A DNA stretch of 64,000 nt from a virus. The position numbers and the translations under genes are program-made. Below the pieces are notes generated by a model, which did no database searches, was not told the DNA's origin, and saw nothing but the letters and a program-made list of their open reading frames with translations. The stretch's first letter is position 1. Each line of letters starts with the position of its first letter. The DNA lies in the IMG/VR virus record IMGVR_UViG_3300029787_000005, positions 62,001 to 126,000 of that record. One strand, 5' to 3'. Of the stretch, positions 4,001 through 30,459 are shown one piece after another.

Positions 4001-7000
4001 CCTGGTAAGTCAATGGCTGTTGACTACGAACATTACCTACCAAGGATTGATAAACTTATGATGGACACTCAAGGAGTGTTCAGTACAACTGAAGGTGCAT
4101 CAAATATAAGACCTGTACCTCCTCAAGACTCTGCAACAGCTATGACTGTTGGATTGATTACTGTACCTGTCTTTCCATCACTAGCAAGTCTACAAGCTGC
4201 TCGTTCAGGTCGACCAGACTATGCATATCAAATCTTGAGTAAACAGCAACGTAACTTCACAATGAAAGACATTGGTCAGATCAAAAATGAAGTTAGAAAG
4301 ATACAATACTACACATCTCTTAACTTACTAGAGAAACAAGCTATTGATCTTACTATTCCATCATCTGCAAATGCTTCATTAGAGAGATTCAAAAACGGAA
4401 TACTTGTTGATAACTTTGTTGATCAAACTGTAGCTGACATTGGAAACAGAGAATTCAAAGCTGGTTACGATAAAGTAAACTCTGTATTGACTTCAAGACA
4501 AAAGAATAATGTGATTGATATCACACCAAATGCATATTCCAATACAGTAAAAACTGGTGATCTAATCACTCTTACATATGATGCTGTAGCTGAATATGAT
4601 CAGAGGTCTGCTACAAGAACAAGAAACCTAGCTGAGTTGTTCTGGAATTATTCTGGTATTGTAAACGTATTTCCAAATTATGATAACTTTCACGACATCA
4701 GACATCCGCCTTCAAATGACTTTCATGTTGAGTTAGACTTAACACAAGGTACACGATCGTTGTTGAATAGTATACGAGACCTTGAAGCAATTCAAGAACC
4801 TCGTAGTGAAGTTATTGGTGATACATCAGCAACTAACTTTCTTGGAGCTACACAAAGTTCTGTAGTTAACCAAGTAAGAAGTCCTGTTCCTGGTGGTAGT
4901 GTTTCAAGAAATGATACAACTACAACAACAGTAAACAACTTTGAAACCATTAGAACTATCAGACGACAGCAAAGTGAAAACCAGTTTCAAACACAAGACA
5001 TTGTTAATACACAAACTGTTGGTGAGTTTGTAAGAGACATATCTTTCAATCCATTCATTAGAGAACAGTTGTTATATCTACATGCATTTGGATTAAAACC
5101 AAATACAAGACACTACATATACTTTGACTCTAAAGCAGTCAGTACTCAATGTCAACCAGCTACAGTAAATGTTGGTGATGCTATAAATGAGTCTAACTTT
5201 AGAACAACTGGTGCTGTAGGTGATGCAATAAGATCAAATGAATCTGGTGAGGTGTTTGCGGTATTTCATCTTCCAGCAGAAACATATCCAGTTGGTGAAA
5301 GACAAGTCAACGTTTCTGATCAAGCAACAGTTGCTGCTGCTTTTGATACTGGATCACAGGCTGGTGGGGTATTCAATGCATATAACTTTGGTATTGATAA
5401 GTCTAGCATACAATTGACAACAAGACAACTAGGTGTTACAAGATCAAGAGTTGTAACTGGTGAAACAGTTGAAACACAAGCTACTAGATCAAGAAGAACA
5501 GAAACAAATACAATTCCTGGTCCAGGTACATTTGTTGCTAATCCTCCTGCAGCTGCAGTTCCTCCTGCAATTATTACAACACCTCCTCCTACTGCAGCTC
5601 CAGAAGATGATGGAGATGGCGACGGTGATGGAGATCCTTTAGCACAAACATTTATAGTTAAGAATGTTAATACAACCACAGGTCAATTTATCACTAAGAT
5701 GGATATCTTCTTTGAAAGTAAAGATCCAGTACTTGGTGTGTTGTTACAGATAAGAACAGTTGAGAATGGTTTTCCATCATCTCACGTTATGCCTAATGGT
5801 GAAGTACATCTAAGGTCAGCTGATGTTAATGTAAGTACTGATGGAACAACAGCAACAACATTTACATTCCCCGCTCCAGTATTCTTGAGAAGTGGATTAG
5901 AGTATTGCTTTGTATTGAAACCTGATGCAAACAATCCAAACTACAACATCTATGTTAGAAAGACTGGTGATACAGATATCACTACAAATACTATAATAAA
6001 CCAAGATAACTTTGAAGGTCTTATGTTCTTATCTACAAACAACAGAGCATGGAGACCATATCAACAAGAAGATGTTAAGTTTACAATCTATAGAGCTGAG
6101 TTCAATGCATCTGATGGTAGTGTTGATTATCAGAATGCTGATCATGAATTCTTTACATTGGAAAGTGTCAATGGTACATTTGAACAAGGTGAGAGAGCAT
6201 TTGTATACAATAATGCAGCAAACATTACTGGTAATGTTGCATTTTCAACAACCAGCGAAACAGTTACTGGCACAGGTTCGACATTCACATCAGACCTTGC
6301 AGTAGGACAGTTTGTTGCTCTGACTAATGGTACATCTCACTCAGTTAGAGAGGTGACGGCAATAACAAACAACACCATACTAACTGTACGAGGATTTCCA
6401 GACTTTACGTCATCTCAAGCTGATGTTCAATTGACACCAACTGGTGAAATATTCTATTATGAAAGTACTAATCAGCTTAGAGAGATGCATCTAATCAAGT
6501 CTACTGCTGCTAATGCTACATTCAAATTTGCTAACACAAATAGTATTGTTGGTAGTGAATCTGGTGCAAATGCTACAATCACAGAAGTTGAAAATATTAA
6601 CATGACTGCATTTGATAACATGATATATCAAATCACACCAGCAGATACAGCATTAACTCAATTTCATCAATCAAATACTGCAACTGGACAAACTGCTAAT
6701 ACACAGTTTCCAATCAACAACAGAAATAGATTGACTGAAGTTGCTATAATTAAGAGTAGATCAAATGAGATAGTTGATGGAACAGGTAAGTCATTGAAAC
6801 ATACTTTCTTGTTTAACTCAGCTAAGTCCCATCTATCTCCTGTGCTTGATGATGGTATTAGTAATATACTAAGAGTTGAAAATATAATTAACAACAGTAA
6901 TACTAATGAGCACTTACCATTAACTGGTGATGCAACCGCTAAGTATCTTTCCAAATCTGTTACTTTGGATGAAGGATTAGATGCTGAAGACTTGAGAGTG

Positions 7001-7597
7001 TTTGTTACAGCTACCAAACCTGGTTCAGCTGATGTTGAAATATATGCAAGAATATCTAATGAGTTAGAAGTTGATGACTTTGAGGACAGACATTGGACAA
7101 GGTTACAGCTTGAAGGGTTCAATAAACAATCAGCTCCAGGTTCAATAGATGACTTTGCTGAGTATGAATATAGAATACCCGATACACCTCCATCAACATT
7201 GCTTGTTGGTAAAGGTCTTGCTGATAATGCAAATGCATTGATTGCAACAACTGATGATCAATCTAGTGCACTATCTGCAGGAGACTTGATAAAGATAGTT
7301 AACACAGATGCATCAATAGATTATCAAATTGAAACAGTAACTGCAGTTAACTCTACAGTTGTTACAGTTGGAAATGCAATCAGCTTTGATAACACACAAG
7401 CAGATATACTGAAGGTAGACACGCCTCAGACAGCGTTTAAAGACCCTCAGAACGAGTTCATTGCAACATACTACAATAGTAGTCAGAATAAATTTGATAC
7501 ATTCAAAAACTTTCAGATTAAGATTGTATTGAAGAGTGGTAATGCTGCATTAGCACCAAGGGTAAGGGACTTCAGAGCTCTGGCATTGAGTATTTAA
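1028..7597 (+). CDS. Giant DUF4815 baseplate/tail structural protein (2189 aa)
   Basis: The N-terminus (residues about 1-70: SPYFDDYDVDSQHH, VPIQARELTQLQSIL, GSIVEGC) matches the DUF4815 type found in baseplate-region proteins of marine T4-like phages. The rest is long and rich in Thr, Asn and Gly, as expected for beta-structured virion proteins. Two related modules with the pattern V-T-G-S/T-x-T-F-T-(T/S)-D-(F/L)-x-V-G occur near residues 678-740 and 1735-1800. Residues about 1505-1525 form a Pro/Ala hinge, followed at 1526-1537 by an acidic Asp-Gly alternation that could bind calcium; a beta-sandwich-like part then starts (DPLAQTFIV). GAACGAG precedes the ATG by a few bases. Role inferred: peripheral baseplate or fibre-attachment protein (gp10-like position). 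No enzymatic motif was seen. Confidence 0.75.
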   Translation: MSKTLDTNLNVSPYFDDYDVDSQHHRVLFKPSVPIQARELTQLQSILQNQIEKFGDVVVKEGSIVEGCSFNIKNTEYVKLLDRDTGAALYTVSEFANGFLQHESSNLIMQTIDSSAGFEITNPDLNTLYGKYVNSGNSSGTDKLRFVAGETLKFYPANGQISNTFTINDGGSAFTNGDTLIFTATRGINASANVTTNSTGGITAVSLIKAGQDFKINDVPVITFSTAGGTGANVTCTINSTASFEIAGLGFTVSGNTEFDPVGQTKRVNVSDGTIYQKGHFVEVDQQGVNVLRYNSNPNNMSVGFITAETIVNSSSNTSLLDNSSGFNNENAPGADRLKLTPTLISKTKAEGVSSNNFLALIKFENGEPITLKEETQFSELGEELAKRTFEESGDYVVKPFSFHTEDDTGNTTFDTIVIGAGKAFVKGFRNETIGASRTQIRKGTTTANVENATISQNYGNYIIVDEYLGSFDFNTGAAIKLLDTAGNRISTCPAGSAETVPSTNTATAVSASAPTYSGTIIGNARVRSVVYHDGVGGKEDGKYRLYLFDIVMNQGKNFADVRAASYFTGADAGVGFADVVLNNGRAVLNDTNLRKFVVPTGVKGIKTFNHKTLAESSYTYRTISTGTAATNGTIVITLTGNQVFDYTGGSTLSTDQEKDFVIVANNTSAQTATLTGTVTTTTSNVVTGSSTTFTTDFQVGDTIRVTGSEDEVITGITNSTHLTTRAAFSTAVSGAAYRRLYVADKVIHLDDVSGNTGSNVTISTDQKSATINMSRGSTLESTFALHITHNITKRQSAQKNKLLSANTYVKINCATNADTSVGPWCLGAPDVLNLQKVYVQYNNFTSIEAAGNDKTEHFELLPNQKDGFYDLSKLKLRTDTLGAPTINSTARILAVFNHFVESGSGFGYATVDSYPVDDDTATLPADKMRTERIPIYTSPQDGQSIDLRDAVDFRPYAANTANTTNALTAGAATTNPAKTVSFSGEQYLAAPGKSMAVDYEHYLPRIDKLMMDTQGVFSTTEGASNIRPVPPQDSATAMTVGLITVPVFPSLASLQAARSGRPDYAYQILSKQQRNFTMKDIGQIKNEVRKIQYYTSLNLLEKQAIDLTIPSSANASLERFKNGILVDNFVDQTVADIGNREFKAGYDKVNSVLTSRQKNNVIDITPNAYSNTVKTGDLITLTYDAVAEYDQRSATRTRNLAELFWNYSGIVNVFPNYDNFHDIRHPPSNDFHVELDLTQGTRSLLNSIRDLEAIQEPRSEVIGDTSATNFLGATQSSVVNQVRSPVPGGSVSRNDTTTTTVNNFETIRTIRRQQSENQFQTQDIVNTQTVGEFVRDISFNPFIREQLLYLHAFGLKPNTRHYIYFDSKAVSTQCQPATVNVGDAINESNFRTTGAVGDAIRSNESGEVFAVFHLPAETYPVGERQVNVSDQATVAAAFDTGSQAGGVFNAYNFGIDKSSIQLTTRQLGVTRSRVVTGETVETQATRSRRTETNTIPGPGTFVANPPAAAVPPAIITTPPPTAAPEDDGDGDGDGDPLAQTFIVKNVNTTTGQFITKMDIFFESKDPVLGVLLQIRTVENGFPSSHVMPNGEVHLRSADVNVSTDGTTATTFTFPAPVFLRSGLEYCFVLKPDANNPNYNIYVRKTGDTDITTNTIINQDNFEGLMFLSTNNRAWRPYQQEDVKFTIYRAEFNASDGSVDYQNADHEFFTLESVNGTFEQGERAFVYNNAANITGNVAFSTTSETVTGTGSTFTSDLAVGQFVALTNGTSHSVREVTAITNNTILTVRGFPDFTSSQADVQLTPTGEIFYYESTNQLREMHLIKSTAANATFKFANTNSIVGSESGANATITEVENINMTAFDNMIYQITPADTALTQFHQSNTATGQTANTQFPINNRNRLTEVAIIKSRSNEIVDGTGKSLKHTFLFNSAKSHLSPVLDDGISNILRVENIINNSNTNEHLPLTGDATAKYLSKSVTLDEGLDAEDLRVFVTATKPGSADVEIYARISNELEVDDFEDRHWTRLQLEGFNKQSAPGSIDDFAEYEYRIPDTPPSTLLVGKGLADNANALIATTDDQSSALSAGDLIKIVNTDASIDYQIETVTAVNSTVVTVGNAISFDNTQADILKVDTPQTAFKDPQNEFIATYYNSSQNKFDTFKNFQIKIVLKSGNAALAPRVRDFRALALSI

Positions 7598-7598
7598 C

Positions 7599-7814
7599 AT
7601 GTCAGATCAAATACGATATGAAACAGATAACGATTCTTTTGATCGGGATCCTAACTCCATGGCTCTTATAAATACAGATAGGAATGCCTACTCACTCTAT
7701 AAGAGTCGTAGGAAAGACGCGCTTGCAGCAAGACAACTACATAATGATGTAGAAGAACTCAAGTCTGATATTGGTGAGATCAAACGAATGATACAGAATT
7801 TAGCTAGAGGATAG
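7599..7814 (+). CDS. Small conserved-type structural-region protein, unknown function
   Basis: This is a 71-residue acidic/basic mixed protein starting one base after the DUF4815 stop. The C-terminal half (about residues 42-70: LAARQLHNDVEELKSDIGEI and onward) has heptad-like spacing of L, V, I and M and is a likely short coiled coil. Such a protein could act as an assembly or trimerisation factor for adjacent fibre proteins, but this is inference from position. No family is recognised. Confidence 0.75.
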   Translation: MSDQIRYETDNDSFDRDPNSMALINTDRNAYSLYKSRRKDALAARQLHNDVEELKSDIGEIKRMIQNLARG

Positions 7815-7815
7815 T

Positions 7816-8475
7816 ATGGCAAAAACATCTTACTTAGGAGCTAATATAGCAGTAGCTACTGATACGTTTAGAGAATGGGTTGAGAGAACTAACCAGCTCG
7901 TATATGATCAAGGAACTATTGTTATAACTGCTGGAGCAGTTGCTCTACCAAATTCAACTAACCATACTATAACATCAGGTAACGGTCATGTCAACGGTAT
8001 CTTTTCTGCAAATACATTAGTAGCAAAAGATAATATAAGAGGTGGTACAGTACAAACTGCTGCTGCCATGACTCTTGCATCTAATCTTCATGCATCTGCA
8101 AATATCACTCATGATATTGGTACACCAACAATGCAGTTTGGAAATGGATACTTTAAGAATGTATTAGCATCAGGAGATGTTGAAGCTAGTTATTCTTCTG
8201 ACATTGCTTTGAAAACTGATCTACAAAAAATGGAAAATGCAGTAGAGGTATGTAGAAACCTTAATGGCTATATGTTTAAATGGAAGACAGATGATCAAAA
8301 GAATGGTCAGACTGATCTAGGTGTTATTGCTCAAGAGATAGAAGCTGAATTACCATTTCTTGTATCAACAAATGGAAATGGAAACAAGGCTGTTAAATAC
8401 CAGTCGCTCATTCCTCTGTTAATAGAAGCTGTAAAAGAGCTTGACAAGAGAGTTGAAGAATTGGAGAAAGACTAA
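7816..8475 (+). CDS. Tail fibre protein with C-terminal S74-type intramolecular chaperone
   Basis: Residues 1-120 are low-complexity beta-type fibre sequence (repeated ANTLVAKDN, ASNLHASANI). From about residue 127 the sequence SSDIALKTDL begins a roughly 93-residue domain typical of Peptidase_S74/intramolecular chaperones of endosialidase-like tailspikes: the Ser-Asp pair (128/129) is the usual self-cleavage site, followed by GVIAQEIEAELP, the V-K-Y-Q-S-L-I-P-L segment and a terminal coiled coil (LIEAVKELDKRVEELEKD). In this family the chaperone trimerises the fibre and is then cleaved off. It starts one base after the previous stop and overlaps the next gene by 1 base (TAATG). Confidence 0.85.
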   Translation: MAKTSYLGANIAVATDTFREWVERTNQLVYDQGTIVITAGAVALPNSTNHTITSGNGHVNGIFSANTLVAKDNIRGGTVQTAAAMTLASNLHASANITHDIGTPTMQFGNGYFKNVLASGDVEASYSSDIALKTDLQKMENAVEVCRNLNGYMFKWKTDDQKNGQTDLGVIAQEIEAELPFLVSTNGNGNKAVKYQSLIPLLIEAVKELDKRVEELEKD

Positions 8476-8768
8476 TGCCATTAAAAGTTAACGGTGTTAC
8501 GATTGTTAACAGCACAGCCAATGTGCAAACATCTACACTGCCGGATACAGGCATATCAACAGGCAACTTTGGAAACACGACCTTTGCTGTCACGGCAAAT
8601 GTAACTAGTAGAGGACTTGTTAATGCTATAAGTGTAGCAGCCATTACAAAGACATCACGTAACTTTGAAGCTGCATCTAATAATGATTCCGAGTATGTTG
8701 TCTACGTTAGTACATCGACACCTTCTGGTGGCGCTAATGGAGATATCTGGTACCAGACATTTAGTTGA
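8475..8768 (+). CDS. Small fibre-associated structural protein
   Basis: This is a 97-residue protein rich in Thr, Asn, Ser and Val with no charge clusters. It ends in SGGANGDIWYQTFS; the G-x-x-G-D-(I/V)-W-Y ending is a common C-terminal signature of phage fibre/attachment modules. The ATG shares an A with the stop of the S74 fibre gene, so translation is probably coupled. It lies 14 bases upstream of the giant repeat-protein gene. Function is inferred from position and composition only. Confidence 0.7.
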   Translation: MPLKVNGVTIVNSTANVQTSTLPDTGISTGNFGNTTFAVTANVTSRGLVNAISVAAITKTSRNFEAASNNDSEYVVYVSTSTPSGGANGDIWYQTFS

Positions 8769-8782
8769 GGCATATATAAAGT

Positions 8783-11700
8783 ATGTCTTACTCTAATCGA
8801 CTTTACGCAAAAGAATATGCTGGAGGGGATCGAACCTTTGAGGTTTCGTATACTGGTACTGGTACCAGGACTCCTTACATCGTATACACGAATGCGTTCC
8901 ATGGATTCTATAATGGATTCGAGGGAGTCTATACTAATAGTAGGACATCAACTCTTGCATGGCAAACAAACTTTGCTGGAGCATACACAGCTTCATATGA
9001 AGGCTTTGTAAACTATAATTCAGACGATACAGATACTTACTCAAAAGCATATACATCATTAAAGAACTTTACTGGTCAATTAGGATACAGAAAAGACTAT
9101 TCAGCCACAGGTAATCAACCAGATAATATCTGGTCTACAATGAACATCTTGGCTAACTACAGTGGTACATATAGTACTGATATTGCATACAGCCGTGTTG
9201 TTGGTTATGTTGGCGATGGAAACTATGATGGTGCAGCATATACAGCTACATGGGTTGGAGAGCTAGCATACACACCAACATATAGTGGATTTGTTGGCTT
9301 TGCTTCATATACAAAAACATATGAAGGTTCAACAACATATACCAAAACATACACTAAGACATATGTTGGTAACACAATATACCAAGCTGAGTGGCAGAGA
9401 GACTACTTAAAAGCATATGGTGGTACAGCAACCTATACAAAAGCGTATACTGTTGATGTAAACTACGACAAAGATTATTCTGCTGGTGCATGGGTAGGAG
9501 CAGACAGTTTCGTAGTTTATAGTAAAGACTATGGTGGTGCAATAACATATCTTGATTCTACTGGTGCTGGTTTCACAGGGTTTGTTAACTACACCAAGGG
9601 TTATCAGGCTACACAATTCTATACAAAGACATATGTTGGTACAGTAGATTATAACAAAAACTATGTTGGTGCTGCTGATTACACTAAGGCATACACTGGC
9701 CGTGCTTCATACATGGCTGAAGAGAACTTCAATAAAAACTATACAAAAGCATATACAACAGTAGCTGACTTTACAAGAGTGTGGTCTGGTGGCTTGTCAT
9801 ATCTTGGTAACGTAAACTATGATGGACTAACATACACAGGCACATATGCTGGTGATACAAACTATCAAACTCTTGTATACTATGTTGGAACATCTGACTA
9901 TGTTGGTACATATGAAGGTCTGGCAGACAATTCATATCTTGGTTCTGCATTTGTTGGTGTATATGAAAAAGATTACATTGGTAACTATTTTAGAATATAC
10001 ACTAAGATCTGGCAAAAAGATTATGTAACAGATTACAACAAGAACTATGTAAAAACTTATACTAAAAGATATGAAAAGTTATATGTTGGTGATTACGTTG
10101 CTGCATATCGGACATCATATCACAAAGATTATGATAAAGTCTATTCTAAAATATGGACAAAAGCATACGAAGTTCCATATACCAAGATTTATTCTAAAGA
10201 TTGGGAAAAGACATATACCAAAATCTATACAAAAGTTTGGACAAAAGACTACCTTGAAGATTATGGCAAAGCATGGCTTGGCATATACAACAAAGATTAT
10301 ATCAAACTATACAACAAAGTATATTCCAAAGATTGGGTTAAAGATTACGGAAAAGCATATGTAGGTCCAGTCTACTATGGAGGATTTGCATCCGGTTCTC
10401 AAACAACTGCATACAATAAAGTTTGGCAGAAAGCATATACAGCTGATTATACAAAAGATTGGGAAAAGGCATATGTCAAATCCTACGAAGGTAGCTTTGA
10501 TGCAACATATACTAAAAACTGGTTAACAGATTATGCAGCAGACTATTCCAAAGACTGGGTTAAAGCATATGCTAAAGACTATGATAAAGTTTGGAATGCT
10601 ACTTACGAAAAAGATTATGGCGCCGACTATACCAAGATATGGACTAAGAACTATGATGAGTCTTGGGCCAAGGAATGGGAAAAAGATTACGGCAAGACAT
10701 ATACAAAAATCTGGACTAAGATTTGGCAGAAAGATTATGTTACAGATTATGAAAAAGACTATGGTAAGACATATACCACTGACTATCTAAAAGACTATGT
10801 TGCAACATACAACAAAGATTATGTTGCAAACTATGATCAAATATATCTTAAAAATTGGTCTAAAGACTATGCAGAAGACTATACTAAGATATGGGAAAAA
10901 GCATACGATGCAGCTTATACTAAGATATGGGTTGGAACGTATGAGAAAAACTGGGTCAAAGCATACGAGAAAAATTATGTCAAGGCTTACATAAAAGCAT
11001 ATGGTAAGACTTGGGAAAAAGACTATGTCACAGATTATGATAAAGTCTATACAAAAGCATACAACAAAGGTTATGTCAAAGCATACACTGCTGCATATAC
11101 TAAGATCTGGAATAGAGATTGGGTCAAAGCATATGCTAAGGTTTGGCTTGGTGAGTATACAAAAATTTGGGATAGAAATTGGGAAAAAGACTATTCCAAG
11201 GCATATGAAAAAGCATGGGTTGGTGTATACAGCAAAGACTATGTTACATCTTACCATGTTCCATATGATAACTTTGACACCACTGTTCTATTACTAAATG
11301 CTGAAATACCAAATGCAACTGATGGTGATGTAGAGTTTATTGATGCATCTGATCAAGGTAACCATGTTACAACTGTACACGGTAGTGCTGCTAAGAGTAC
11401 AGATCAAAAGAAATTTGGTTCTGCAGCTATAGAAGTTCCAAGCAGTGGTTCTAGTGGTCTAACAATTAACTTTGCAGATGATGACTTCAACTTTCAAAAT
11501 GAAGACTTTACAATTGAGTTTTGGTTAAGAGCTCCTGGTACAAACAATGCTACAATCTTAGAAGCATACGATCATTCTGACAATAGTGTCAAATGGGCTA
11601 TCAGAGGTAACGATGCATCTAGTCCTAGTGAGATAATATTCTACGAAGGAACAACTGCTAGAGTTACAGCAGATGACAATAGTCCTTGGTCATCTGATAC

Positions 11701-14700
11701 ATTTAATCATGTTGCAATTGTAAGAATAAGCAACGCAATCAAAGTATACATTAATGGTACAGCTGATGCAGCAACGTATACCTCAGCTGCTAACTTAACT
11801 GGAGCCACTAGATTAGTAATTGGTAACAGAAGACAATTAGATGCATCTGTTGGTGGTTTCATTGATGACCTTAGAATAGACAAAACCAATGGTAAGTATA
11901 CTGGTAACTTTAATGTTACTGATAATGAGACAGCTCAAGAACAAATAAATTCTGCCGATTGGACATCATTCCAAAAAGCATATGTTAAAACATACAGTGC
12001 AGACTATACTAAGATCTGGGCAAAGGATTATGATAAGACATACGAAGGTGTCTTTGATGCAAGTTATGAAAAAGCATATGATAAAGTATATACAAAGGTA
12101 TGGGAAAAAGATTACGTCACAGATTATACCAAGGTCTGGAATAAGAACTGGGAAAAGGCATACGATAAAGTATACACTAAAGCCTGGGTTGGAGCGTATA
12201 CTAAAATATATGTAGGTCCAGTTTACTATGGTGGTTTCGCATCAGGATCACAGACAACAAACTATACCAAAGTTTGGGAAGGTAGCTTTGATGCTGACTA
12301 TACTAAAATTTGGAACAAAGATTATGAAAAAGCATACGATAAAATCTATACCAAAAACTGGGTAAAAGCATACGATAAGACATACACTAAAGACTGGGTC
12401 AAGGCATATGCTAAGACATGGACTGGTGTATATACTAAGATATGGACAAAAGATTACGATAAAGTTTATACTAAAATTTGGAACAAAGACTATGTAAAAG
12501 ATTACGTCAATGTTTGGGTTGGTGAATGGGTCAAGAATTGGGTTAAAGATTACGAAGGTTCTTTTGATGCAACATACAACAAAGTTTGGGTGAAAGCATA
12601 TTCCAAAGACTATGATAAAGTATATGAAGGTTCTTTTGATGCCACATATGAGAAGGCATACTCTAAAGACTATGATAAGGTCTATGAGACAGATTGGAAC
12701 AAAGAGTATGTTGAAACATATGAAAAAGACTATACTAAGATATGGACTAAGAACTGGGTCAAGAATTATGATACTGAATACGAAAAGCAGTATGATAAAG
12801 ATTGGGTTAAGGCATACGAGAAAGATTATGTAGCTGCATATGACAAGAACTGGGATGCAGTCTACAACAAAGATTGGGTCAAAGCCTACGATAAGGTTTA
12901 TACTAAGTTATGGGCTAAAGACTATGAAGCTGCTTATACCAAGATTTGGGATAGAGCTTGGGTCAAGAGTTACGATAAAAACTGGGTCAAGACTTATACC
13001 AAAGACTGGAACAAAGTATATGTTAAGACGTATACTAAAAATTGGGTTAAAAATTACGAGACAGATTACTCAACTGATTACGGTAAGACATATACAAAAG
13101 CATATGAAGCTCACTATACAAGAGACTTCCTCAAGTTATGGCAAGGTGAGTATACTAAGAACTATGACAAAGACTACTTAAAAGACTATGTCAAAACGTA
13201 TACTAAAAACTGGGTCAAAGATTACGAGACTGACTATACTCAAGAGTATCAAGGTACTTACACCAAAGCCTATGAAGGTATCTTTGCAACATTTATCAAA
13301 TACTATCTCGGTGCTAAAAACTGGGAAGGTAATATAAACTACACCAAGAACTATACTGGTCTAAGGTATTATGGTAAGGCTTGGGGTACTGAGTATGCAA
13401 AAACTTGGACTGGTAACTATACTCACGCATACGAAAAAGATTATGTTAAGAACTATGATGCTGACTATACAAAAGATTGGACCGCAACATATACCAAGGC
13501 ATATGTTAAGAACTATGATAAAGTATACACCAAAGTATGGGCTAAAGATTGGACCAAGGCTTATGTTGATGGGTCTGGTGATACCTATACTAAGGTATGG
13601 TCAGCAGATTATGCTGCAGACTATACTAAGGCTTGGAACAAAGATTATGAAAAAGCATACGATAAAGTTTGGAACAAAGTATATACCAAGTCTTGGGAAA
13701 AGGGTTACGTTAAGAATTATGATAAAGAGTATGTTGCTAACTATACTGGATCGTATGGAGGTGCAGCAGCTTATCTAAAAGCATATGCTGGAACAACTGA
13801 TTACTCAGGTCCTGTTAACTATACTAAGACTTGGGAAGGACCATACATAGCCAGCTTTGCACCATCGTATACTGGTGATAGTGACTTTACACAAAGATAT
13901 ACTGGTGCACTAACAAGGAATGTTCCTTACGAAGGTACAACAAGTTTTGTAGGTCCTTCTGGTGGTCAGCTTGATTCTAACCTTGCTGGTCAACCTAAAC
14001 TTCATATTATGCAAGACAATACTTGGAAGAATGTCAAGCAATTGTTTGTACATGCATCTGGTCAGTGGAAGAAAGTCAAGTACTTAAATACTAAACAAGG
14101 TGATACTTGGAAGCTAGCATACATTGGTTACGATACAACTGATATCTTCTTAGATGAAGGTGAAGTTCTTACTAGCGATAGTGATGCAGGTTCAGCTCGA
14201 GGTCACGATCTTCATATGGGTAAGATCACTTACTATGTAAATGACTTCAACTTAAAATCATATCTTGAAGCTAAAGGTAAGACACCAGATACTGTTCCAC
14301 AATTAGTGAACATATTTGTTGGTGTAAAAGATGACTATACTAAGAACTTTGTATTTGGTTCTACAGCAAATAATATTCCTGCTGTAAACTTAAATATGGA
14401 TTCTGTTACAGCTAATGTTTCAGGAGATACACAAGCAGAGATCAAACACCTTGTACGCATTGTAAACTACACAACTGGATTCATCGTAGGTAAAGGTGGA
14501 GATGGTGGTGATGCAAATGGAAGCACAAGAGGTCTAGGCAGCCATGGTAGTGATGGTGGTCATGCTATTGAGTCTGGAGCCAATGTACATCTGTTTGTAG
14601 AAAACTATGGTACTATTGGTGGTGGCGGTGGTGGTGGAGGTGCATCTGGTATCTCTGATCCATACAGTAAAGAATCTGGTGTGTACACAACTACATATCT

Positions 14701-17700
14701 TGGTGACACATATCATGGTTCTGGAGTACTTACTGAGTATGGTGCTACGTGGAGTAAAACATATACAAAAGACTGGATTAAAAATTACGTTAAAGTATAT
14801 GTTGGCGACTACACTAAAGTATATGAAAAAGATTATTCTGCAGACTATGTTAAGGCATACGTTGGTGTATATAATAAAGACTGGGAAAAGGTATACGTTA
14901 AAGAATATGCAGCAGACTACACTAAAGTATATGCTAAGGATTGGGAAAAGACATATACTAAAGCATACGAAGGCTCATTTGATGCAACTTATACTAAGAC
15001 ATATACCAAGATATGGGAAGGTAATTATACCAAAACATATACTAAAAACTATGATAAAGTTTACACAAAAGTATGGGCCAAAGACTTCAGCACAGTATAT
15101 CAAGGTGAGTATACAAAAGTATGGTCTAAAGGATATGCAAGAGATTTTGAAGCAGCATTCAATGGTGGCGGTACAGACTATCTAAGAATCTTCTCAAAAG
15201 ATTACGCCAAAGGATATGAGGTTGTATACACCGGTGACTACACTAAAGTGTGGTCTACAGACTTCAGCGCTGACTATACTAAATCTTGGGAAAAGGCATA
15301 CGATAAAGAGTATGTTGGAGCATACACTAAAGATTATAATAAAGACTATGCAAAGGCTTGGGTTGGAGTATATAATAAAGATTGGGTCAAGGCTTATTCC
15401 AAAGATTATACTAAAGTGTGGACTGGGAACTATCTTAAAGACTATGCTAAGGTATGGGCAAAAGCATATGAAGGATCTTTTGATGGTACTTGGACTAAGG
15501 TTTGGACTAAAACATACACTAAGATCTGGCAAGGTGCATACGAGAAAGATTATCTCAAAGCATACCAGAAAGTATACAACAAACAATATGATGCAAGTTA
15601 TACTGAAGCATACCAGAAAGCATACACTGGACAATTGTATTGGATTGATGAAGACGTAGCATCTTATACTGGAGCTGCTGGAAATTTCACATCTGCTCGA
15701 GCATATGGAGATGGTGAAGTTAGCTTTATCAAAGACTTTAACAAAGAATATGTTTCTGGATTTACTGGCCAGACAGCTTACACTGCAGGAGTACCAGGAT
15801 CAAGAGGTGAGCTTGGATCATTCTCACAAGCAGAGAACTATGATGTTGATTATACTAAACTATATGCATCTCCATATACTAAAGCATACGATAAGATATA
15901 TGCTAAGGCTTGGGATTCATCTGCTGCTAACTATACAGTTAACTGGGAGAAGGCTTGGGTAGAAGATTGGGCTTCAAACTGGGCTGGATCTTTCCATGGT
16001 GGTCAGCAAGATGCAATGACACCAACAAACTTTATGAAGACTTATCTTCCAGACTCTGGTGTTGCTCTATATGCAAAAGAATATACAAATACAAGATTTG
16101 GTCGTACATATGGTGGATATGAATCTGCTGGATTCATTACATCAGTTGGATCATATGCAAAAGCATACACCAAAACATATACTAAGATATGGACTAAATC
16201 ATATACCAAGGCTTGGGAAAAAACATATACTAAAGTATACGAGAAAGATTACAACAAAGCATACGATGGTGCTGCATTTGCTAAAGAATGGACTAAGACA
16301 TATACCAAAACATATGATGGTACAATATATGGTGGCGTATATGAAAAAACATATCAAAAAGCATATGACAAAGTATGGCAAGGAAGTTATGTTGATGAGT
16401 GGGGTGGAGCATATGATAAAGAATATGAAGCAGATTATCTTGCAACATATGTTAAGACATACATTGGTATCTATACCAAGACATACGAGAGTGCAGACGA
16501 TGCATATGTAGGACCTACTTATGATGGTGCAACATATACTAAGAGTTGGGAAAAAGCATACTCTGTTGATTACTCAACTGATTGGGAAAAAGCATACACC
16601 AAGTCATACGACAAAGACTATGAAAAAGCATACGAAGCTGCTTATACAAAAGCATGGTCCAAAGACTATAATAAAGATTATGAAAAAGACTACGAAGGAA
16701 CTTTCTCTAAGAGTTATGTTAAGAACTACGATCGTGTATATGTTGGTGATTATACTAAGACTTACGATAAAGATTATTCCAAAGACTATGCTAAGGTATG
16801 GAACAGCTCTGCTGCAACATATACAAAAGTATATACTAAGAGTTATGACAAAACATACTCAAGTGATTGGACTAAGTCATATGAGAAGGATTATGTAAAA
16901 GATTACACTGGTGCATTTACCAAAGCGTATACTAAAACATATACAAAAGATTACTCAGCTGATTACGCTAAAGAATGGACAAAAGCATATACCAAAACAT
17001 ATGATAAAGATTACACTAAAGCGTATACAAAAATCTATACAAAAGATTATGTCAAAAACTACGATGCAGATTATGTTGGATCATACACTGCAACATTCTC
17101 AAGATCATACGATGCAGAATACGAAGGATCATATGATAAAGAGTATGAAAAAGCATGGACAAAAATATGGACTAAGGGTTTTGGTTCTACTACATACATT
17201 GGTGACTACTCAGCAACATATCTTGCTGACTTTACAAAACAATATCAAAAAGACTTTGGTAGCTCATACAGTAGAGACTATAATGCTGAATATGAAGCAT
17301 CATATACAGGAACATATGTTGCAACATATGTCAAGACATACTCAAAAGATTGGGTCAAGGCATATGAAGCAGACTACAACAAAGACTATACAGCAGATTA
17401 TGCTACAACATGGATAAAAGAATATCTTGGTAACTATAGCAGACCTGGTGGTGTGTATGGTGCATTCCTCAAAGAATACACAGATACATTTGTTAGAGTA
17501 TACAACACCAAAGGTTCATTCATTGGTACATATCTCAAAACATATACCAAGAACTATGATCAATTGTATCAAGGTGTTTATACAAAAGCATATCAAAAGG
17601 CATATGAAGGTACATTTAACCAAGACTATCTAGTAATATACAACAAAGATTATGCTAAGGCATATGTTGGACCAGTCTTCTACGGTGGTTTTGCTTCTGG

Positions 17701-18262
17701 CTCACAGACAACAACATACAACAAAGCATATACTAAAGGTTATGAGAAGAACTGGATTAAGACTTACACAGGTATCTTCACTAAAGATTATGAGAAGGCA
17801 TACACTGGTGACTATACTAAGTCTTGGACAAAAGACTATGTTAAGACATTTGAAGATACAGCATATTCAAGAGAAGTAAACATTGCATATCTTGGATTTG
17901 CAGAGACAACTGGTGTAGCTGGTTCTGGTGGAGCTGGTTGGAACATTGGTGAAGAAGGTACTACTGAAGCTGATCACAGTCATATGTTATTCCTACCACA
18001 AGAAGGTAATCTAATCAATGGTGGTAGTCGTGGTGTTCCTGATTGGGAATATGGTAACTCAAGAGCCATTGGTGGTAAAGGTGGAGACTTAGGTAATGTT
18101 GGTACCGGTGGTGGTGAAAGGTTCCTAAGAAAATCAAGACTTGGAAGATCTGGTGATGGTGGTAAACCTGGTGCAGCCATTAAAGGTTATGACTCTGATT
18201 ATGTTAACATGATCTACCAGGGTAATATATTAGGTGACCCCAACTACATGTTCCAAGGTTAA
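8783..18262 (+). CDS. Giant tetrapeptide-repeat tail fibre protein with LamG-like and glycine-rich tip domains
   Basis: This 3159-residue protein is mostly (aromatic)-x-Lys-x repeats: Tyr/Trp/Phe every fourth residue with Lys two residues before. Order: non-repeat start (1-30); loose then strict array (about 30-826); laminin-G/concanavalin-like domain (about 829-1045, with FTIEFWLRAP, FNHVAIVR, IKVYINGT, GGFIDDLRI); second array (about 1057-1715); start of a tip domain (about 1724-1956) ending in eight glycines (1946-1953); third array (about 1975-3030); and the rest of the tip (about 3041-3159, GSGGAGWNIGEEG, GGKGGDLGN, GGKPGAAIKGYDS). A 16-residue spacer, VGP-V-(Y/F)-YGGFASGSQTT, occurs at 527, 1144 and 2962. 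Role inferred: host-recognition fibre with a lectin-like domain and a receptor-binding tip. The frame is intact; a GAGG lies 12 bases upstream of the ATG. Confidence 0.85.
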   Translation: MSYSNRLYAKEYAGGDRTFEVSYTGTGTRTPYIVYTNAFHGFYNGFEGVYTNSRTSTLAWQTNFAGAYTASYEGFVNYNSDDTDTYSKAYTSLKNFTGQLGYRKDYSATGNQPDNIWSTMNILANYSGTYSTDIAYSRVVGYVGDGNYDGAAYTATWVGELAYTPTYSGFVGFASYTKTYEGSTTYTKTYTKTYVGNTIYQAEWQRDYLKAYGGTATYTKAYTVDVNYDKDYSAGAWVGADSFVVYSKDYGGAITYLDSTGAGFTGFVNYTKGYQATQFYTKTYVGTVDYNKNYVGAADYTKAYTGRASYMAEENFNKNYTKAYTTVADFTRVWSGGLSYLGNVNYDGLTYTGTYAGDTNYQTLVYYVGTSDYVGTYEGLADNSYLGSAFVGVYEKDYIGNYFRIYTKIWQKDYVTDYNKNYVKTYTKRYEKLYVGDYVAAYRTSYHKDYDKVYSKIWTKAYEVPYTKIYSKDWEKTYTKIYTKVWTKDYLEDYGKAWLGIYNKDYIKLYNKVYSKDWVKDYGKAYVGPVYYGGFASGSQTTAYNKVWQKAYTADYTKDWEKAYVKSYEGSFDATYTKNWLTDYAADYSKDWVKAYAKDYDKVWNATYEKDYGADYTKIWTKNYDESWAKEWEKDYGKTYTKIWTKIWQKDYVTDYEKDYGKTYTTDYLKDYVATYNKDYVANYDQIYLKNWSKDYAEDYTKIWEKAYDAAYTKIWVGTYEKNWVKAYEKNYVKAYIKAYGKTWEKDYVTDYDKVYTKAYNKGYVKAYTAAYTKIWNRDWVKAYAKVWLGEYTKIWDRNWEKDYSKAYEKAWVGVYSKDYVTSYHVPYDNFDTTVLLLNAEIPNATDGDVEFIDASDQGNHVTTVHGSAAKSTDQKKFGSAAIEVPSSGSSGLTINFADDDFNFQNEDFTIEFWLRAPGTNNATILEAYDHSDNSVKWAIRGNDASSPSEIIFYEGTTARVTADDNSPWSSDTFNHVAIVRISNAIKVYINGTADAATYTSAANLTGATRLVIGNRRQLDASVGGFIDDLRIDKTNGKYTGNFNVTDNETAQEQINSADWTSFQKAYVKTYSADYTKIWAKDYDKTYEGVFDASYEKAYDKVYTKVWEKDYVTDYTKVWNKNWEKAYDKVYTKAWVGAYTKIYVGPVYYGGFASGSQTTNYTKVWEGSFDADYTKIWNKDYEKAYDKIYTKNWVKAYDKTYTKDWVKAYAKTWTGVYTKIWTKDYDKVYTKIWNKDYVKDYVNVWVGEWVKNWVKDYEGSFDATYNKVWVKAYSKDYDKVYEGSFDATYEKAYSKDYDKVYETDWNKEYVETYEKDYTKIWTKNWVKNYDTEYEKQYDKDWVKAYEKDYVAAYDKNWDAVYNKDWVKAYDKVYTKLWAKDYEAAYTKIWDRAWVKSYDKNWVKTYTKDWNKVYVKTYTKNWVKNYETDYSTDYGKTYTKAYEAHYTRDFLKLWQGEYTKNYDKDYLKDYVKTYTKNWVKDYETDYTQEYQGTYTKAYEGIFATFIKYYLGAKNWEGNINYTKNYTGLRYYGKAWGTEYAKTWTGNYTHAYEKDYVKNYDADYTKDWTATYTKAYVKNYDKVYTKVWAKDWTKAYVDGSGDTYTKVWSADYAADYTKAWNKDYEKAYDKVWNKVYTKSWEKGYVKNYDKEYVANYTGSYGGAAAYLKAYAGTTDYSGPVNYTKTWEGPYIASFAPSYTGDSDFTQRYTGALTRNVPYEGTTSFVGPSGGQLDSNLAGQPKLHIMQDNTWKNVKQLFVHASGQWKKVKYLNTKQGDTWKLAYIGYDTTDIFLDEGEVLTSDSDAGSARGHDLHMGKITYYVNDFNLKSYLEAKGKTPDTVPQLVNIFVGVKDDYTKNFVFGSTANNIPAVNLNMDSVTANVSGDTQAEIKHLVRIVNYTTGFIVGKGGDGGDANGSTRGLGSHGSDGGHAIESGANVHLFVENYGTIGGGGGGGGASGISDPYSKESGVYTTTYLGDTYHGSGVLTEYGATWSKTYTKDWIKNYVKVYVGDYTKVYEKDYSADYVKAYVGVYNKDWEKVYVKEYAADYTKVYAKDWEKTYTKAYEGSFDATYTKTYTKIWEGNYTKTYTKNYDKVYTKVWAKDFSTVYQGEYTKVWSKGYARDFEAAFNGGGTDYLRIFSKDYAKGYEVVYTGDYTKVWSTDFSADYTKSWEKAYDKEYVGAYTKDYNKDYAKAWVGVYNKDWVKAYSKDYTKVWTGNYLKDYAKVWAKAYEGSFDGTWTKVWTKTYTKIWQGAYEKDYLKAYQKVYNKQYDASYTEAYQKAYTGQLYWIDEDVASYTGAAGNFTSARAYGDGEVSFIKDFNKEYVSGFTGQTAYTAGVPGSRGELGSFSQAENYDVDYTKLYASPYTKAYDKIYAKAWDSSAANYTVNWEKAWVEDWASNWAGSFHGGQQDAMTPTNFMKTYLPDSGVALYAKEYTNTRFGRTYGGYESAGFITSVGSYAKAYTKTYTKIWTKSYTKAWEKTYTKVYEKDYNKAYDGAAFAKEWTKTYTKTYDGTIYGGVYEKTYQKAYDKVWQGSYVDEWGGAYDKEYEADYLATYVKTYIGIYTKTYESADDAYVGPTYDGATYTKSWEKAYSVDYSTDWEKAYTKSYDKDYEKAYEAAYTKAWSKDYNKDYEKDYEGTFSKSYVKNYDRVYVGDYTKTYDKDYSKDYAKVWNSSAATYTKVYTKSYDKTYSSDWTKSYEKDYVKDYTGAFTKAYTKTYTKDYSADYAKEWTKAYTKTYDKDYTKAYTKIYTKDYVKNYDADYVGSYTATFSRSYDAEYEGSYDKEYEKAWTKIWTKGFGSTTYIGDYSATYLADFTKQYQKDFGSSYSRDYNAEYEASYTGTYVATYVKTYSKDWVKAYEADYNKDYTADYATTWIKEYLGNYSRPGGVYGAFLKEYTDTFVRVYNTKGSFIGTYLKTYTKNYDQLYQGVYTKAYQKAYEGTFNQDYLVIYNKDYAKAYVGPVFYGGFASGSQTTTYNKAYTKGYEKNWIKTYTGIFTKDYEKAYTGDYTKSWTKDYVKTFEDTAYSREVNIAYLGFAETTGVAGSGGAGWNIGEEGTTEADHSHMLFLPQEGNLINGGSRGVPDWEYGNSRAIGGKGGDLGNVGTGGGERFLRKSRLGRSGDGGKPGAAIKGYDSDYVNMIYQGNILGDPNYMFQG
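8870..11260 (+). repeat. Tetrapeptide-repeat array 1 (12-bp period)
   Basis: This region codes residues about 30-826 of the giant fibre. It begins as loose YTG/YTK/YVG units and becomes a strict four-residue period from about 9960 on (for example TKIW QKDY VTDY NKNY). The DNA period is 12 bases, but Tyr (TAT/TAC), Lys (AAA/AAG) and Thr codons vary, so long perfect DNA repeats are rare. It contains the first 16-residue spacer module at 10361-10408 and an EGSFDATY element at about 10486-10515. Confidence 0.95.
10361..10408 (+). repeat. 16-residue spacer module, copy 1
   Basis: It codes VGPVYYGGFASGSQTT, residues 527-542 of the first giant fibre. The module interrupts the four-residue register and is followed by an aromatic unit (AYNKVW). 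Confidence 0.9.
11261..11920 (+). other. LamG/concanavalin-like domain embedded between repeat arrays
   Basis: This stretch codes residues about 828-1046 of the giant fibre and is compositionally unlike the arrays around it: Asp/Asn/Thr-rich with few Lys-Tyr units. Signature segments are FTIEFWLRAP, an EAYDHSDNSVKWAI-type strand, FNHVAIVRI, IKVYINGTADAATY, RLVIGNRRQ and GGFIDDLRIDK, in the order expected for Laminin_G_3-type jelly-roll domains, which bind carbohydrate in many phage and bacterial surface proteins. Ligand unknown. Confidence 0.8.
11951..13930 (+). repeat. Tetrapeptide-repeat array 2
   Basis: This array codes residues about 1057-1715 of the giant fibre. The four-residue aromatic period is almost unbroken from about 11970 to 13270 and becomes looser (YTG, YEG units) towards the tip domain. 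It contains the second 16-residue spacer (12212-12259) and several EGSFDA(T/D)Y elements (about 12283, 12553, 12625). Confidence 0.95.
12212..12259 (+). repeat. 16-residue spacer module, copy 2
   Basis: It codes the same 16 residues at 1144-1159, within a 37-residue block (1133-1169) that is identical in amino acids to a block of the second giant protein. Confidence 0.9.
14705..17880 (+). repeat. Tetrapeptide-repeat array 3, inserted within the glycine-rich tip domain
   Basis: This array codes residues about 1975-3030 of the giant fibre, between the eight-glycine run of the tip (14618-14641) and the continuing tip sequence (from about 17915). Besides strict units it has two irregular patches without the period: about 15625-15850 (YWIDEDVASYTGAAG, GVPGSRGELGSF) and about 15985-16150 (FHGGQQDAMTPTNF). 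The third 16-residue spacer, with Phe for Tyr, is at 17666-17713. Confidence 0.95.
17666..17713 (+). repeat. 16-residue spacer module, copy 3
   Basis: It codes the module at residues 2962-2977 with one change (VGPVFYGG: Phe for Tyr). Confidence 0.9.
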
Positions 18263-18268
18263 GGTGTC

Positions 18269-21200
18269 ATGGGACGGCCCCTTAAAATTAAAACCTCTGG
18301 AGGTGGAACATGGATAGCTCTACAAGAGATACCAGATACAGAATTAACCCACATAGTCCATCAAGTTCTTACAGAGTTTGCATCTAGTACTTCTGGTACT
18401 GGAACACTTTCTGTTGGAACAGATACTGGAACAAGTATTGGTACATTTACAGATACCAATTCATCAACAAGTTCCACAACTACTGTTTATCAAAATTTAA
18501 CGTCCGTGTCAGAATCAAGTATGGTCCGCCCCGTGGAGTTCGGTTCAACTATTCAAGAGGCATCTGATGCAAACATTAATTCGTTCATCATTAGCACTGC
18601 TCTTTCTAATCTTGTGTCTAACGGAATTGGGTCTTATGTCCTGTCAACAACAAATCCTGACTCAGATAGATACACTGCTATAACACCAGCGCTAACTGAT
18701 AACACAACGAGTACTTCTACAAGTTATAATTTATACAGAAAAACATCTGTTGCAACTGCACCAGCTCAAGTAATACCATTAAAGGTTACTGGTAGTACAG
18801 TTAAACAGATGACTAATACAGAGATCAAAACTCTCACAGCAAGAGTAAGAAATAGAATCATTGACACAGGAATTGGTAAGTATGCTATTCAAGCAGCTGC
18901 ACCATCTACTGGTACATGGGTTGATCAAGGAACAATACTTGATACAAAGATCATTGATTCTGATAGCGATTCCTATTCAAGGACTTACTTAAAAACATAC
19001 ACTAAAGCATTTGCAAAGAATTATCTCAAGACATACACTGGAACATTTGTTGGACAGTATGTTGGTACATATGAGAAAGATTATCAAAAAGCATATACCA
19101 GTGCAATAAACTATGAGAAGATATACACTACAGTTTGGACTAAGTCATATAGTAAAGACTTTATTGGTGTGTATCAAGGTGTAGTCAACTTCAATAGAAC
19201 ATTTGAAGGTGACTTTGCAAAAGATTGGATCAAGTCTTACAGTAAAGCATACACTGGCTTTATACTATATGCAAAAGATTATGATCAAACATTCACAGGA
19301 AACTTTCATAAAGACTATCTCAAGGGATATGTTGGTGAGAGAAACTATCTAGCAGAGTATGCAAGAGATTGGAACAAAACATACACCAAGTTATATACTG
19401 GTGAATATCAAAAGACAGAAAACTTTGAAGTTAATTATGAAGGTGAAAGAGTTGTAAACTACAATGCAACCTTTGCTGCTTTCTACGAAGGTGAGATAAC
19501 TTCAGCTGCAACATATGTCAAAGCATATGTAAAAGATTTTGGAAATGATTATGCTGCTTCATTCTCAGCTGCTGCAAACTATTCTGGTACATTCAACAGA
19601 ACATACACGAAAGATTATGGTAGAGCATGGACTGTTGAGTTTTCAGGTCCTGGTGTATTCCAATCTGAATGGACTAAAAACTATACAGTAAACTATCAAA
19701 AGGCTTATGCAAAGCTCTGGACAAAAGATTGGGTAAAGCAATATATTGTTCAGTATGAAAAGTTATATGAAAAGAGTTGGTTGGAAGATTGGGTCAAGGC
19801 TTACGAGAAAGACTATGAAGCAGCATATGATAAAGATTGGATTAAAAACTGGGTCAAATCATATTCAAAAGATTGGAATAAAGATTATTCTGCTGACTAT
19901 CTAAAAGACTATGGTAAGACATATACTACTGATTACAACAAAGATTATATCACCAACTACGAGAAAACATATGTGAAGGCATACGTTGGTGTATACAATA
20001 AAGACTATATCAAAGCATACGAGAAAGATTGGGTTACAGACTATACTCACAATTGGGTCAAAGCATATCTAAAGGTATGGAACAAAGACTATGTCAAAGG
20101 TTATGAGATTGCATGGAACAAAGTATGGTTAGGTATCTATACTAAAGACTGGTCAAAAGACTATGAAAAAATATATGTAAAGAATTGGGTAAAATCATAT
20201 GATGCGGACTACGCAAAACAATGGCTTGGTGAGTATGAAAAAAATTATGTCAAGTCTTATGACAAAGATTATGTTAAGGCATACGATCGCATCTGGTCAC
20301 AAACGTACACAAAAATCTACGATGCAGCATACACAAAGATCTGGGCCAAGGACTGGGAAAAAGATTACGTAAAGATATATCAAAAGAACTACGTTAAAAC
20401 ATATAGTGCTGCATATGAAGGATCGTTTGATGAAAACTATAACAAAGATTATGTAGCTGCATATACAAAGATATGGAACAAGACTTATACTAAGATCTGG
20501 CAGAAAGACTATGTCACAGATTACACAAAGACATACACAACAGATTATAATAAAGACTATACAAAAATTTATGCTAAGGCTTGGGTTGGTGCATATACAA
20601 AAATATATGTTGGGCCTGTGTACTACGGTGGTTTTGCATCTGGATCTCAAACTACAAACTACACAAAAGTTTGGGAAGGTAGCTTTGGTGCCAACTATAC
20701 AAAGGTATGGGTAAAGACATATACCAAAGATTGGAACAAAGCATATACCAAGAACTGGATAAAAAACTATGATGCTGATTATGTAAAAGCATATGATAAG
20801 ATATACGAAAAGGCTTGGGTCAAGACTTATACTAAAGCATATGTTGGTGTTTACAATAAGGATTGGAACAAAGATTACGTTAAGGATTATTCCAAAAATT
20901 GGGTTAAAGCATATACTAAGAATTACGATAAAGTATATAACAAAGATTGGTCTAAAGATTGGAACGTTGATTACGTTGCAGTGTATCTAAAGAATTGGGT
21001 TAAGACATACGACAAAGATTATGTTAAAGCATATGAAGGTGCCTTTGATGCAACCTACACAAAGATATGGAATAAAGATTATCTAAAAGACTATGCTAAG
21101 TTGTGGGCTAAGGATTATGATAAAGAGTATGAAGGATCTTTTGATGCTGCATATGTTAAACAATATGCAAAGAACTGGGTAAAGGCTTATGAGGCTAGTT

Positions 21201-29130: not shown

Positions 29131-29530
29131 CTATCCACCTTCTTGTAATACTCAAGAATTCATCCACTTTTGTTACTCTCTCTTTATTATCTCTATTGAT
29201 AAGTGCTAGAGGTAACCAATCTTTACATGCTATCCAATCATGTATTGTATGATGGTCACTTATAGTTGACCAAGTCAACCATGTACCGACACCATGATTC
29301 TTCAACTCTCTAAAACATTTCTCTATTGTAAATGCTCTGAGAGTCTTATCAAATTCAAATGGTAGTCTACCAGACGCATGAAACTGTTGAGGGTCTAAGT
29401 ACGCCTGGTACGTATCTTTATAAGTTGCAACATAATAATACTTATACTTCTTATTATTATATAATAATCTTATTGGGTTAAGCTCATCACCTTTTGGCTT
29501 CTCGAAGAATGTTGGCACTAACTTCTTCAT
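29117..29530 (-). CDS. Unknown protein of the minus-strand cassette
   Basis: This 137-residue protein begins at an ATG overlapping the radical SAM stop by one base (TAATG). It is rich in aromatic residues (KYKYYYVATYKDTYQAYL, GVGTWLTWSTISDHHTIHDW). The His-His-x-x-His spacing near the middle is suggestive of metal binding but does not match a family I recognise. Its place between the radical SAM gene and three glycosyltransferases suggests a role in the same pathway. Confidence 0.6.
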   Translation of the reverse strand: MKKLVPTFFEKPKGDELNPIRLLYNNKKYKYYYVATYKDTYQAYLDPQQFHASGRLPFEFDKTLRAFTIEKCFRELKNHGVGTWLTWSTISDHHTIHDWIACKDWLPLALINRDNKERVTKVDEFLSITRRWIDDTH

Positions 29531-30459
29531 TAGTAGCCTCCTTCGTTTGCAACGATATGTGCGGGAAGGGGCGCCAGTCTAAAGTCTTCCGTAATTCTTC
29601 CTCTGCGAGTTTGGTCCATGAATGGGTAAAGCCTAGCGTCCATATGACTATCCCAATCCGCAATTTTAATCCATATACCGCTTCGATGTAACGCTCTTCC
29701 AATTGAATCCGGGTTAAGGGGGAACATAAAGGTGTCCGGTTCAACATGTTGGCCATAGATTGGTTTCTCCTTCCATGAGTTGATATAGTCCACTGTTAGA
29801 CTATAATGATCTGCACACATCTGAATCATGTCATCCATGCTCCAGTTGTCTACACTCTCTAATAAATACCTACCATGCTGGCCAACGTTTTTGAAGCGTA
29901 TCATTGCGTGGTCGATATTCTTTTGTTTAAATAAATGAAGAAGTCTACTTGGTGCATCATCATTTATTCCTTTACATAATATAGTGCCTGTGTCAACAAT
30001 AAATTTACAAGCCTTGATATTCTCAAGAGCCATTATCTTTTGTTTAGCACATCTAAGTTCATCAATAGCTTCATACCAATCATCATTATCCACACCGTTC
30101 AATGACAAATAAACATGCGACAGCTTAGCCTCTCGCAAGCTACGAGTATACCTAATACTAGCCAATTTCAGTCCATTAGTCAACAGGGTACATCTATGCC
30201 CTGCCTTTCTGATCCTGACTATAATATCAGTTAGATCATTTCTCATGGTTGGCTCAGCACCCATGATTCTGATCATAGTTCTTTTTGGGAATCTACTGAT
30301 TGTATTTATAAGACGATCAATGTCCATGTCAGGAATATCTCTATTTGGTATGTAACAATTTTGACATGTCATATTACATTGATGAGTCACATCAGCTGTG
30401 ACATCAGTGAAATGATTATCTTCTGGATCTAGTTCATAGTAACCTGGTAAGGTGGTCAT
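29530..30459 (-). CDS. Radical SAM enzyme
   Basis: The 309-residue protein has VTHQCNMTCQNCYIPN with Cys28, Cys32 and Cys35 in the CxxxCxxC order that holds the [4Fe-4S] cluster of radical SAM enzymes, then IRIMGAEPTMRNDL (the GGEP-type SAM-binding motif with Ala for Gly) and CTLLTNGLKL, as in MoaA-like members. The C-terminal part (about 230-309) has no extra Cys cluster, so a SPASM domain is absent. GAGGAAG precedes the ATG. The substrate is unknown; neighbouring glycosyltransferases and a dioxygenase suggest sugar or small-molecule modification. Confidence 0.85.
   Translation of the reverse strand: MTTLPGYYELDPEDNHFTDVTADVTHQCNMTCQNCYIPNRDIPDMDIDRLINTISRFPKRTMIRIMGAEPTMRNDLTDIIVRIRKAGHRCTLLTNGLKLASIRYTRSLREAKLSHVYLSLNGVDNDDWYEAIDELRCAKQKIMALENIKACKFIVDTGTILCKGINDDAPSRLLHLFKQKNIDHAMIRFKNVGQHGRYLLESVDNWSMDDMIQMCADHYSLTVDYINSWKEKPIYGQHVEPDTFMFPLNPDSIGRALHRSGIWIKIADWDSHMDARLYPFMDQTRRGRITEDFRLAPLPAHIVANEGGY

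What the first reader, a model, noticed from the sequence alone, without database searches (positions are those of the whole stretch)
12179..12289. 37 identical residues in two genes, with 17 of 37 codons changed silently
Residues 1133-1169 of the first giant protein and 770-806 of the second (20576-20686) are the same amino acids from KAWVGAYTK through to WEGSF. By codon count 17 of 37 codons differ, all synonymous. The block was duplicated or converted between genes long ago and has been kept by strong selection on protein sequence, or synonymous change is favoured to limit recombination between repeats.
Basis: seen in the sequence. Interest (0 to 1): 0.78.

Follow-up and report, generated by a model that had tools for sequence, protein, structure and literature searches.

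The report
Shared module in giant phage proteins
Two neighbouring giant tail-fibre-like genes of a T4-like virus carry the same 37-amino-acid stretch written with different silent letters, most likely because a short module repeated through both genes is now and then copied between its copies and then held fixed at the protein level while the silent letters drift at random.

Summary
The identity is far beyond chance (shuffled arrays share runs of 9-12 residues). The silent divergence is unremarkable: independent codon choice would give 18.8±2.9 differences, so silent sites are saturated. The core, YVGPVYYGGFASGSQTT, occurs four times in the window (three in gene 1, one in gene 2), interrupting arrays of four-residue aromatic-x-Lys-x units. 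Related viral contigs carry up to eight copies each, and copies within a virus resemble each other (core identity 0.86; shuffled labels 0.72). In relative G005, seven copies share nearly identical DNA at the core centre while flanks keep positional identity: concerted evolution by short-tract recombination. Core dN/dS is 0.013-0.018 between the window and two relatives, against 0.14-0.16 for whole genes. Selection for silent change to limit recombination is not supported: repeated DNA words exceed synonymous shuffles. In the window itself any transfer is too old to show in the DNA. Real, but mostly ordinary evolution in a protein family without a Pfam model.

The parts
8783..18262 (+). P1, 3159-aa giant protein: arrays of four-residue [YWF]-x-[K/G/A]-x units with embedded domains
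   Evidence: ORF; unit statistics
18269..22360 (+). P2, 1363-aa second array protein, directly downstream
   Evidence: ORF; unit statistics
12179..12289 (+). 37-aa block in P1 (residues 1133-1169)
20576..20686 (+). 37-aa block in P2 (residues 770-806), same amino acids, 17 silent codon differences
10358..10408 (+). core module copy, slot A (YVGPVYYGGFASGSQTT)
12209..12259 (+). core module copy, slot B, inside the P1 37-aa block
17663..17713 (+). core module copy, slot E (YVGPVFYGGFASGSQTT)
20606..20656 (+). core module copy, slot F, inside the P2 37-aa block
11474..11878 (+). LamG / concanavalin A-like lectin domain embedded in the first array of P1
   Evidence: Pfam PF13385, E 1.7e-17
14384..14659 (+). 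Gp38-like glycine-rich adhesin segment of P1
   Evidence: Pfam PF05268, E 1.4e-9; phrog_11439 positions 593-668
17906..18193 (+). C-terminal continuation of the Gp38-like segment, after about 1080 residues of second array
   Evidence: phrog_11439 positions 670-759, weak, E 0.0045

Best explanation
P1 and P2 are giant array proteins of a T4-like myovirus, probably tail-fibre or adhesin components. A short module (core about 17 residues, up to about 24 with its edges) recurs at fixed places in both proteins and breaks the four-residue register of the array. Now and then one copy overwrites another by short-tract ectopic recombination (gene conversion), so that copies within one virus come to share that virus's version. 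Between such events strong purifying selection holds the amino acids while silent sites drift. In this window the last exchange between the P1 and P2 copies is old enough that silent sites have reached random expectation while the protein is still identical. Shown: identity, saturation, the constraint, the within-virus resemblance, DNA-level homogenisation in one relative (G005). Inferred: that the same process made the window's pair, and that the module is a structural junction or binding element of a fibre.
For: 17 silent differences against 18.8±2.9 expected by independent codon choice; all six copy pairs saturated. Core dN/dS 0.013 and 0.018 against 0.141 and 0.162 for all codons. Core copies sit at matching positions in relatives (526, 1143 in P1 and 781 in P2 in both window and G001). 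Within-virus core identity 0.864 over 45 copies, shuffled labels mean 0.717, maximum 0.768 of 2000. Window vs G004, slots B and F: 8 non-synonymous sites group the two genes of one virus, 0 group the same slot of two viruses. G005: seven copies use the same codon at most core-centre positions, including GAG seven times; silent divergence in the core centre is 0.18 of random within G005, 0.57 between orthologous slots of G005 and G007, while flank amino-acid identity is 0.79-0.83 for orthologous slots and 0.36-0.45 for others. In the EGSF serine, TCA is shared by both G002 copies and AGY by the window and G001 copies, a slow marker fitting DNA descent. UvsY is in the same genome.
Against: In the window itself no synonymous site signal of exchange survives: window vs G004, B/F silent sites are 1 paralog, 1 ortholog, 3 cross, so the conversion there rests on analogy with relatives. 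In G007, silent divergence within the virus (0.62-0.67) is no lower than between viruses (0.51-0.65). The G005/G007 label-swap tests are weak (6 of 64 and 10 of 64 swaps as low). No RecA/UvsX homologue was found in the 128-kb record, which may be incomplete.
Confidence: 0.68

Rival explanations
1. Plain common descent without later exchange: the block was duplicated once when P2 and P1 arose from a shared ancestor, and it has simply been conserved.
For: P1 and P2 are alike over about 1280 aligned residues (42% identity, silent sites at 0.94 of random); the core is very constrained.
Against: Viruses differ from each other at the block, yet slots B and F within each virus agree: 24/24 in window, G001 and G004, 23/24 in G002, although window and G004 differ at five of the 24 positions in both slots. 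Single descent needs the same changes twice. G005 shows DNA-level homogenisation.
Confidence: 0.13
2. Concerted change at protein level only: no DNA exchange, but all copies face the same partner (each other, a chaperone, a receptor), so that the same amino-acid changes are selected in every copy.
For: In window, G001 and G004 the B/F pair is identical in protein with silent sites at or near random (0.98, 0.86, 1.05). Window vs G004: non-synonymous sites group by virus 8 to 0, silent sites do not.
Against: G005 copies share DNA, not only protein; shared serine codon class in G002 versus window/G001; silent saturation erases DNA evidence, so its absence in old pairs says little. Pooled silent divergence among G002 copies is about 0.76, the same as the window-G002 divergence of 0.75, as exchange soon after the split would give.
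Confidence: 0.14
3. Synonymous diversification is selected, to prevent recombination and deletion between repeats.
For: Half of the codons in the block differ while the protein does not.
Against: The differences equal random expectation. Real genes hold more repeated DNA words than synonymous shuffles: 9-mers 14063 vs 10760 (z 10.8), and vs 12071 (z 6.2) when neighbouring bases are kept. Identical 5-residue words within 40 aa have silent divergence 0.83 of random, not above 1.
Confidence: 0.04

Closest known systems
Giant hypothetical protein WJE88074.1 of Phage C48C1 (OQ984149.1, Kyanoviridae)
   Same: A protein of over 3000 residues with four-residue aromatic arrays interrupted by globular domains, lying just after tail-fibre genes and a tail assembly chaperone; matched by tblastn over 84% of P2 at 20.5% identity. 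Only record in the phage collection with a match.
   Different: Its units are mostly [YF]-[TASV]-[GR]-[NDT] rather than aromatic-x-Lys-x, and it lacks the VGP..GGF core module. Matches between low-complexity arrays are weak evidence of descent.
Gp38 tail-fibre adhesins of T4-like phages (Pfam PF05268)
   Same: P1 matches the glycine-rich adhesin over 92 residues above Pfam's cut-off (38.5 bits against 25).
   Different: P1 is over ten times longer; the array lies within the Gp38-like part, and the module is not part of Gp38.
Concerted evolution of repeated protein segments by gene conversion (general phenomenon)
   Same: Copies within one genome resemble each other more than copies in other genomes; DNA homogenisation seen in G005.
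   Different: The tract is very short (about 13-24 codons) and in the window so old that only the protein still shows it.

Membership tests
Concerted evolution by gene conversion | Copies within a genome more alike than copies between genomes | tested here: met
   0.864 within, 0.717 mean and 0.768 maximum for shuffled labels
Concerted evolution by gene conversion | Synonymous sites homogenised too (DNA exchange) | tested here: inconclusive
   Met in G005 (0.18 of random in the core centre) and partly in G002 (slots B-E 0.52); not visible in the window (0.98), where sites are saturated
Concerted evolution by gene conversion | Flanks keep positional orthology while the tract does not | tested here: met
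   G005/G007 flank aa identity 0.79-0.83 for orthologous slots vs 0.36-0.45 for others; core 0.95 for both
Gp38-type tail-fibre adhesin | Sequence match to the Gp38 profile above cut-off | tested here: met
   P1 segment, 38.5 bits, cut-off 25; covers only profile positions 38-120 of 218
Gp38-type tail-fibre adhesin | Sits at the tip of a long tail fibre and binds the receptor | not testable with these tools
   needs virion structure or binding assays
T4-like myovirus | Gp23 major capsid protein and contractile sheath | tested here: met
   Gp23 PF07068 E 1.9e-148; tail sheath phrog_23 E 3.8e-123
Selection against DNA repeats (synonymous diversification) | Fewer repeated DNA words than synonymous shuffles | tested here: not met
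   More, not fewer

The most novel reading that the evidence does not exclude
The module copies change in step at the protein level without DNA exchange, because all copies in a virus must fit one shared partner; amino-acid changes sweep through many copies in two genes by parallel selection on separate synonymous backgrounds.
Probability: 0.1. Interest if true: 0.75.

Novelty: new member of a known kind. Interest (0 to 1): 0.38.

Why it matters
It gives a clean natural case in which a repeated protein module in viral fibre-like genes is homogenised in very short tracts, with every stage from near-identical DNA (G005) to complete silent saturation (the window). It warns that protein-identical, silently different repeats need no special selection on codons. 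It also points to a family of giant four-residue-array proteins in T4-like phages that Pfam and PHROGs do not describe.

Tried and rejected
Rejected: chance identity; silent change under selection. A first per-copy codon count used a misplaced register for the P2 copy (part) and was redone correctly. tblastn of the 37-mer in the phage collection: no match. Related genomes in genome contigs: none. Solved structures: no sequence match for the array. Paper searches for the array words, for giant repeat proteins, for C48C1 and for concerted evolution in phage fibres gave nothing on this family; only open-licence papers are held. RecA (PF00154) and phrog_97 were not found in the 128-kb record. psbA (PF00124) was not found, so no sign of a cyanobacterial host from that gene.

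Full report
What was checked. The window is 62001-126000 of a 128,318-base virus record. It encodes a T4-like myovirus: Gp23 major capsid protein, tail sheath, terminase and baseplate wedge. The capsid protein is 70% identical to that of Stenotrophomonas phage DLP_6 and 65% to those of the Pelagibacter phage Mosig and Methylophilales phage Melnitz. The host is not known.

The two proteins. P1 (8783-18262) and P2 (18269-22360) consist largely of four-residue units: an aromatic residue (Y 69%, W 21%, F 10%), a variable residue, K in 64%, and a variable residue. P1 also holds a LamG-like domain and a Gp38-like adhesin segment. The same PHROG profile (phrog_11439) continues, weakly, at the P1 C-terminus after about 1080 residues of array, so the second array seems to sit inside the adhesin part. 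An S74 peptidase-type fibre protein lies just upstream. This makes a tail-fibre role likely, but it is inferred.

Is the identity more than chance? Yes. With the units of both genes shuffled, the longest shared run was 9-12 residues. Most of the block is a module, YVGPVYYGGFASGSQTT, that breaks the array register. It occurs at four places in the window: P1 slots A (526), B (1143), E (2961) and P2 slot F (781), numbered by open frame.

Is the silent divergence special? No. Given the codon use of the two genes, independent choice gives 18.8±2.9 differences over the 37 codons; 17 were seen. All six pairs of module copies show 8-11 differences with about 9 expected. Against synonymous shuffles the genes have more repeated DNA words, not fewer: z = 10.8 for 9-mers, and z = 6.2 when neighbouring bases are kept. 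Identical words close together are not more diversified than distant ones. So there is no sign that silent change is favoured.

Relatives. Scans of viral contigs gave 20 and then 17 loci, several from the same contigs or near-identical viruses. Whole array regions were taken from ten records. Orthologous genes: window vs G001 87-88% identical in protein with silent sites at 0.44-0.53 of random, window vs G002 about 71-76% and 0.75, window vs G004 56-58% and 0.83; P1 vs P2 within the window 42% and 0.94. The nearest relative, G001, has the same 37 residues in both genes. Its orthologous slots keep DNA memory (0.57 of random, against 0.92 for different slots), so no general exchange has happened since that split.

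Constraint. In the window-G001 comparison the core (68 codons) has 1 non-synonymous and 20 synonymous changes, dN/dS 0.013, against 0.141 for all 4560 codons; against G002 it is 0.018 and 0.162. The aromatic position of the array units is also strongly conserved, so the core is not alone in being constrained. Between G005 and G007 the core value is 0.052, mainly because one Ala/Glu difference is repeated across copies.

Change in step. Within-virus core identity is 0.864, against a shuffled-label mean of 0.717 and maximum of 0.768. Slots B and F agree at 24, 24, 23 and 24 of 24 positions in window, G001, G002 and G004, although window and G004 differ at five of those positions. For window vs G004, eight non-synonymous sites group the two genes of one virus and none the same slot of two viruses; silent sites show no preference. 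In G005 the DNA itself is homogenised: seven copies have identical codons at most core-centre positions, silent divergence there is 0.18 of random within G005, while flanks keep positional identity. Across viruses the silent divergence of copies within one virus runs from 0.47 (G005) over 0.73-0.76 (G006, G007, G002) to 0.90-0.98 (G001, G004, window). This series is what occasional short-tract exchange followed by silent drift would give. The label-swap tests on G005/G007 are weak and G007 alone shows no excess DNA likeness, so the DNA evidence rests mainly on G005 and to a lesser degree on G002.

What stays open. The function of the module, the fold of the array, and whether the window's own pair was made by exchange or by parallel selection.

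Noticed in passing
window 14384-18193: A Gp38-like adhesin segment of P1 appears to be split by about 1080 residues of four-residue array: phrog_11439 positions 593-668 match before it and 670-759 (weakly) after it.
   Followed up: partly
window 25170-26159, minus strand: A PstS-like phosphate-binding protein gene (PF12849, E 4.9e-42) in the phage, as in many marine T4-like phages.
   Followed up: no
window 29530-31024, minus strand: A radical SAM protein gene (PF04055, E 3.3e-15) next to a weak aspartyl/asparaginyl hydroxylase match, in a minus-strand cluster of mostly unnamed genes just after the array genes.
   Followed up: no
window 49250-49651: UvsY recombination mediator (PF11056, E 2.6e-33), although no RecA/UvsX match was found in the 128-kb record.
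   Followed up: partly
L071 (G001), about 5046-14452: In the nearest relative P1 reads as two overlapping open frames in different frames (1527 and 1673 residues); the fetched stretch holds 7 N bases, so an assembly error is possible.
   Followed up: no
L011 and L014: Longer blocks (about 60 residues or more around EGSFDGSFDANYTKIWVGP) are nearly identical between the two array genes of each virus.
   Followed up: partly
L026 2001-2160 of the C48C1 protein: The C48C1 giant protein holds a direct repeat of about 75 residues (KTRHRSYLYYSTDTSTNQQFFEPRVDDM...) within its array.
   Followed up: no
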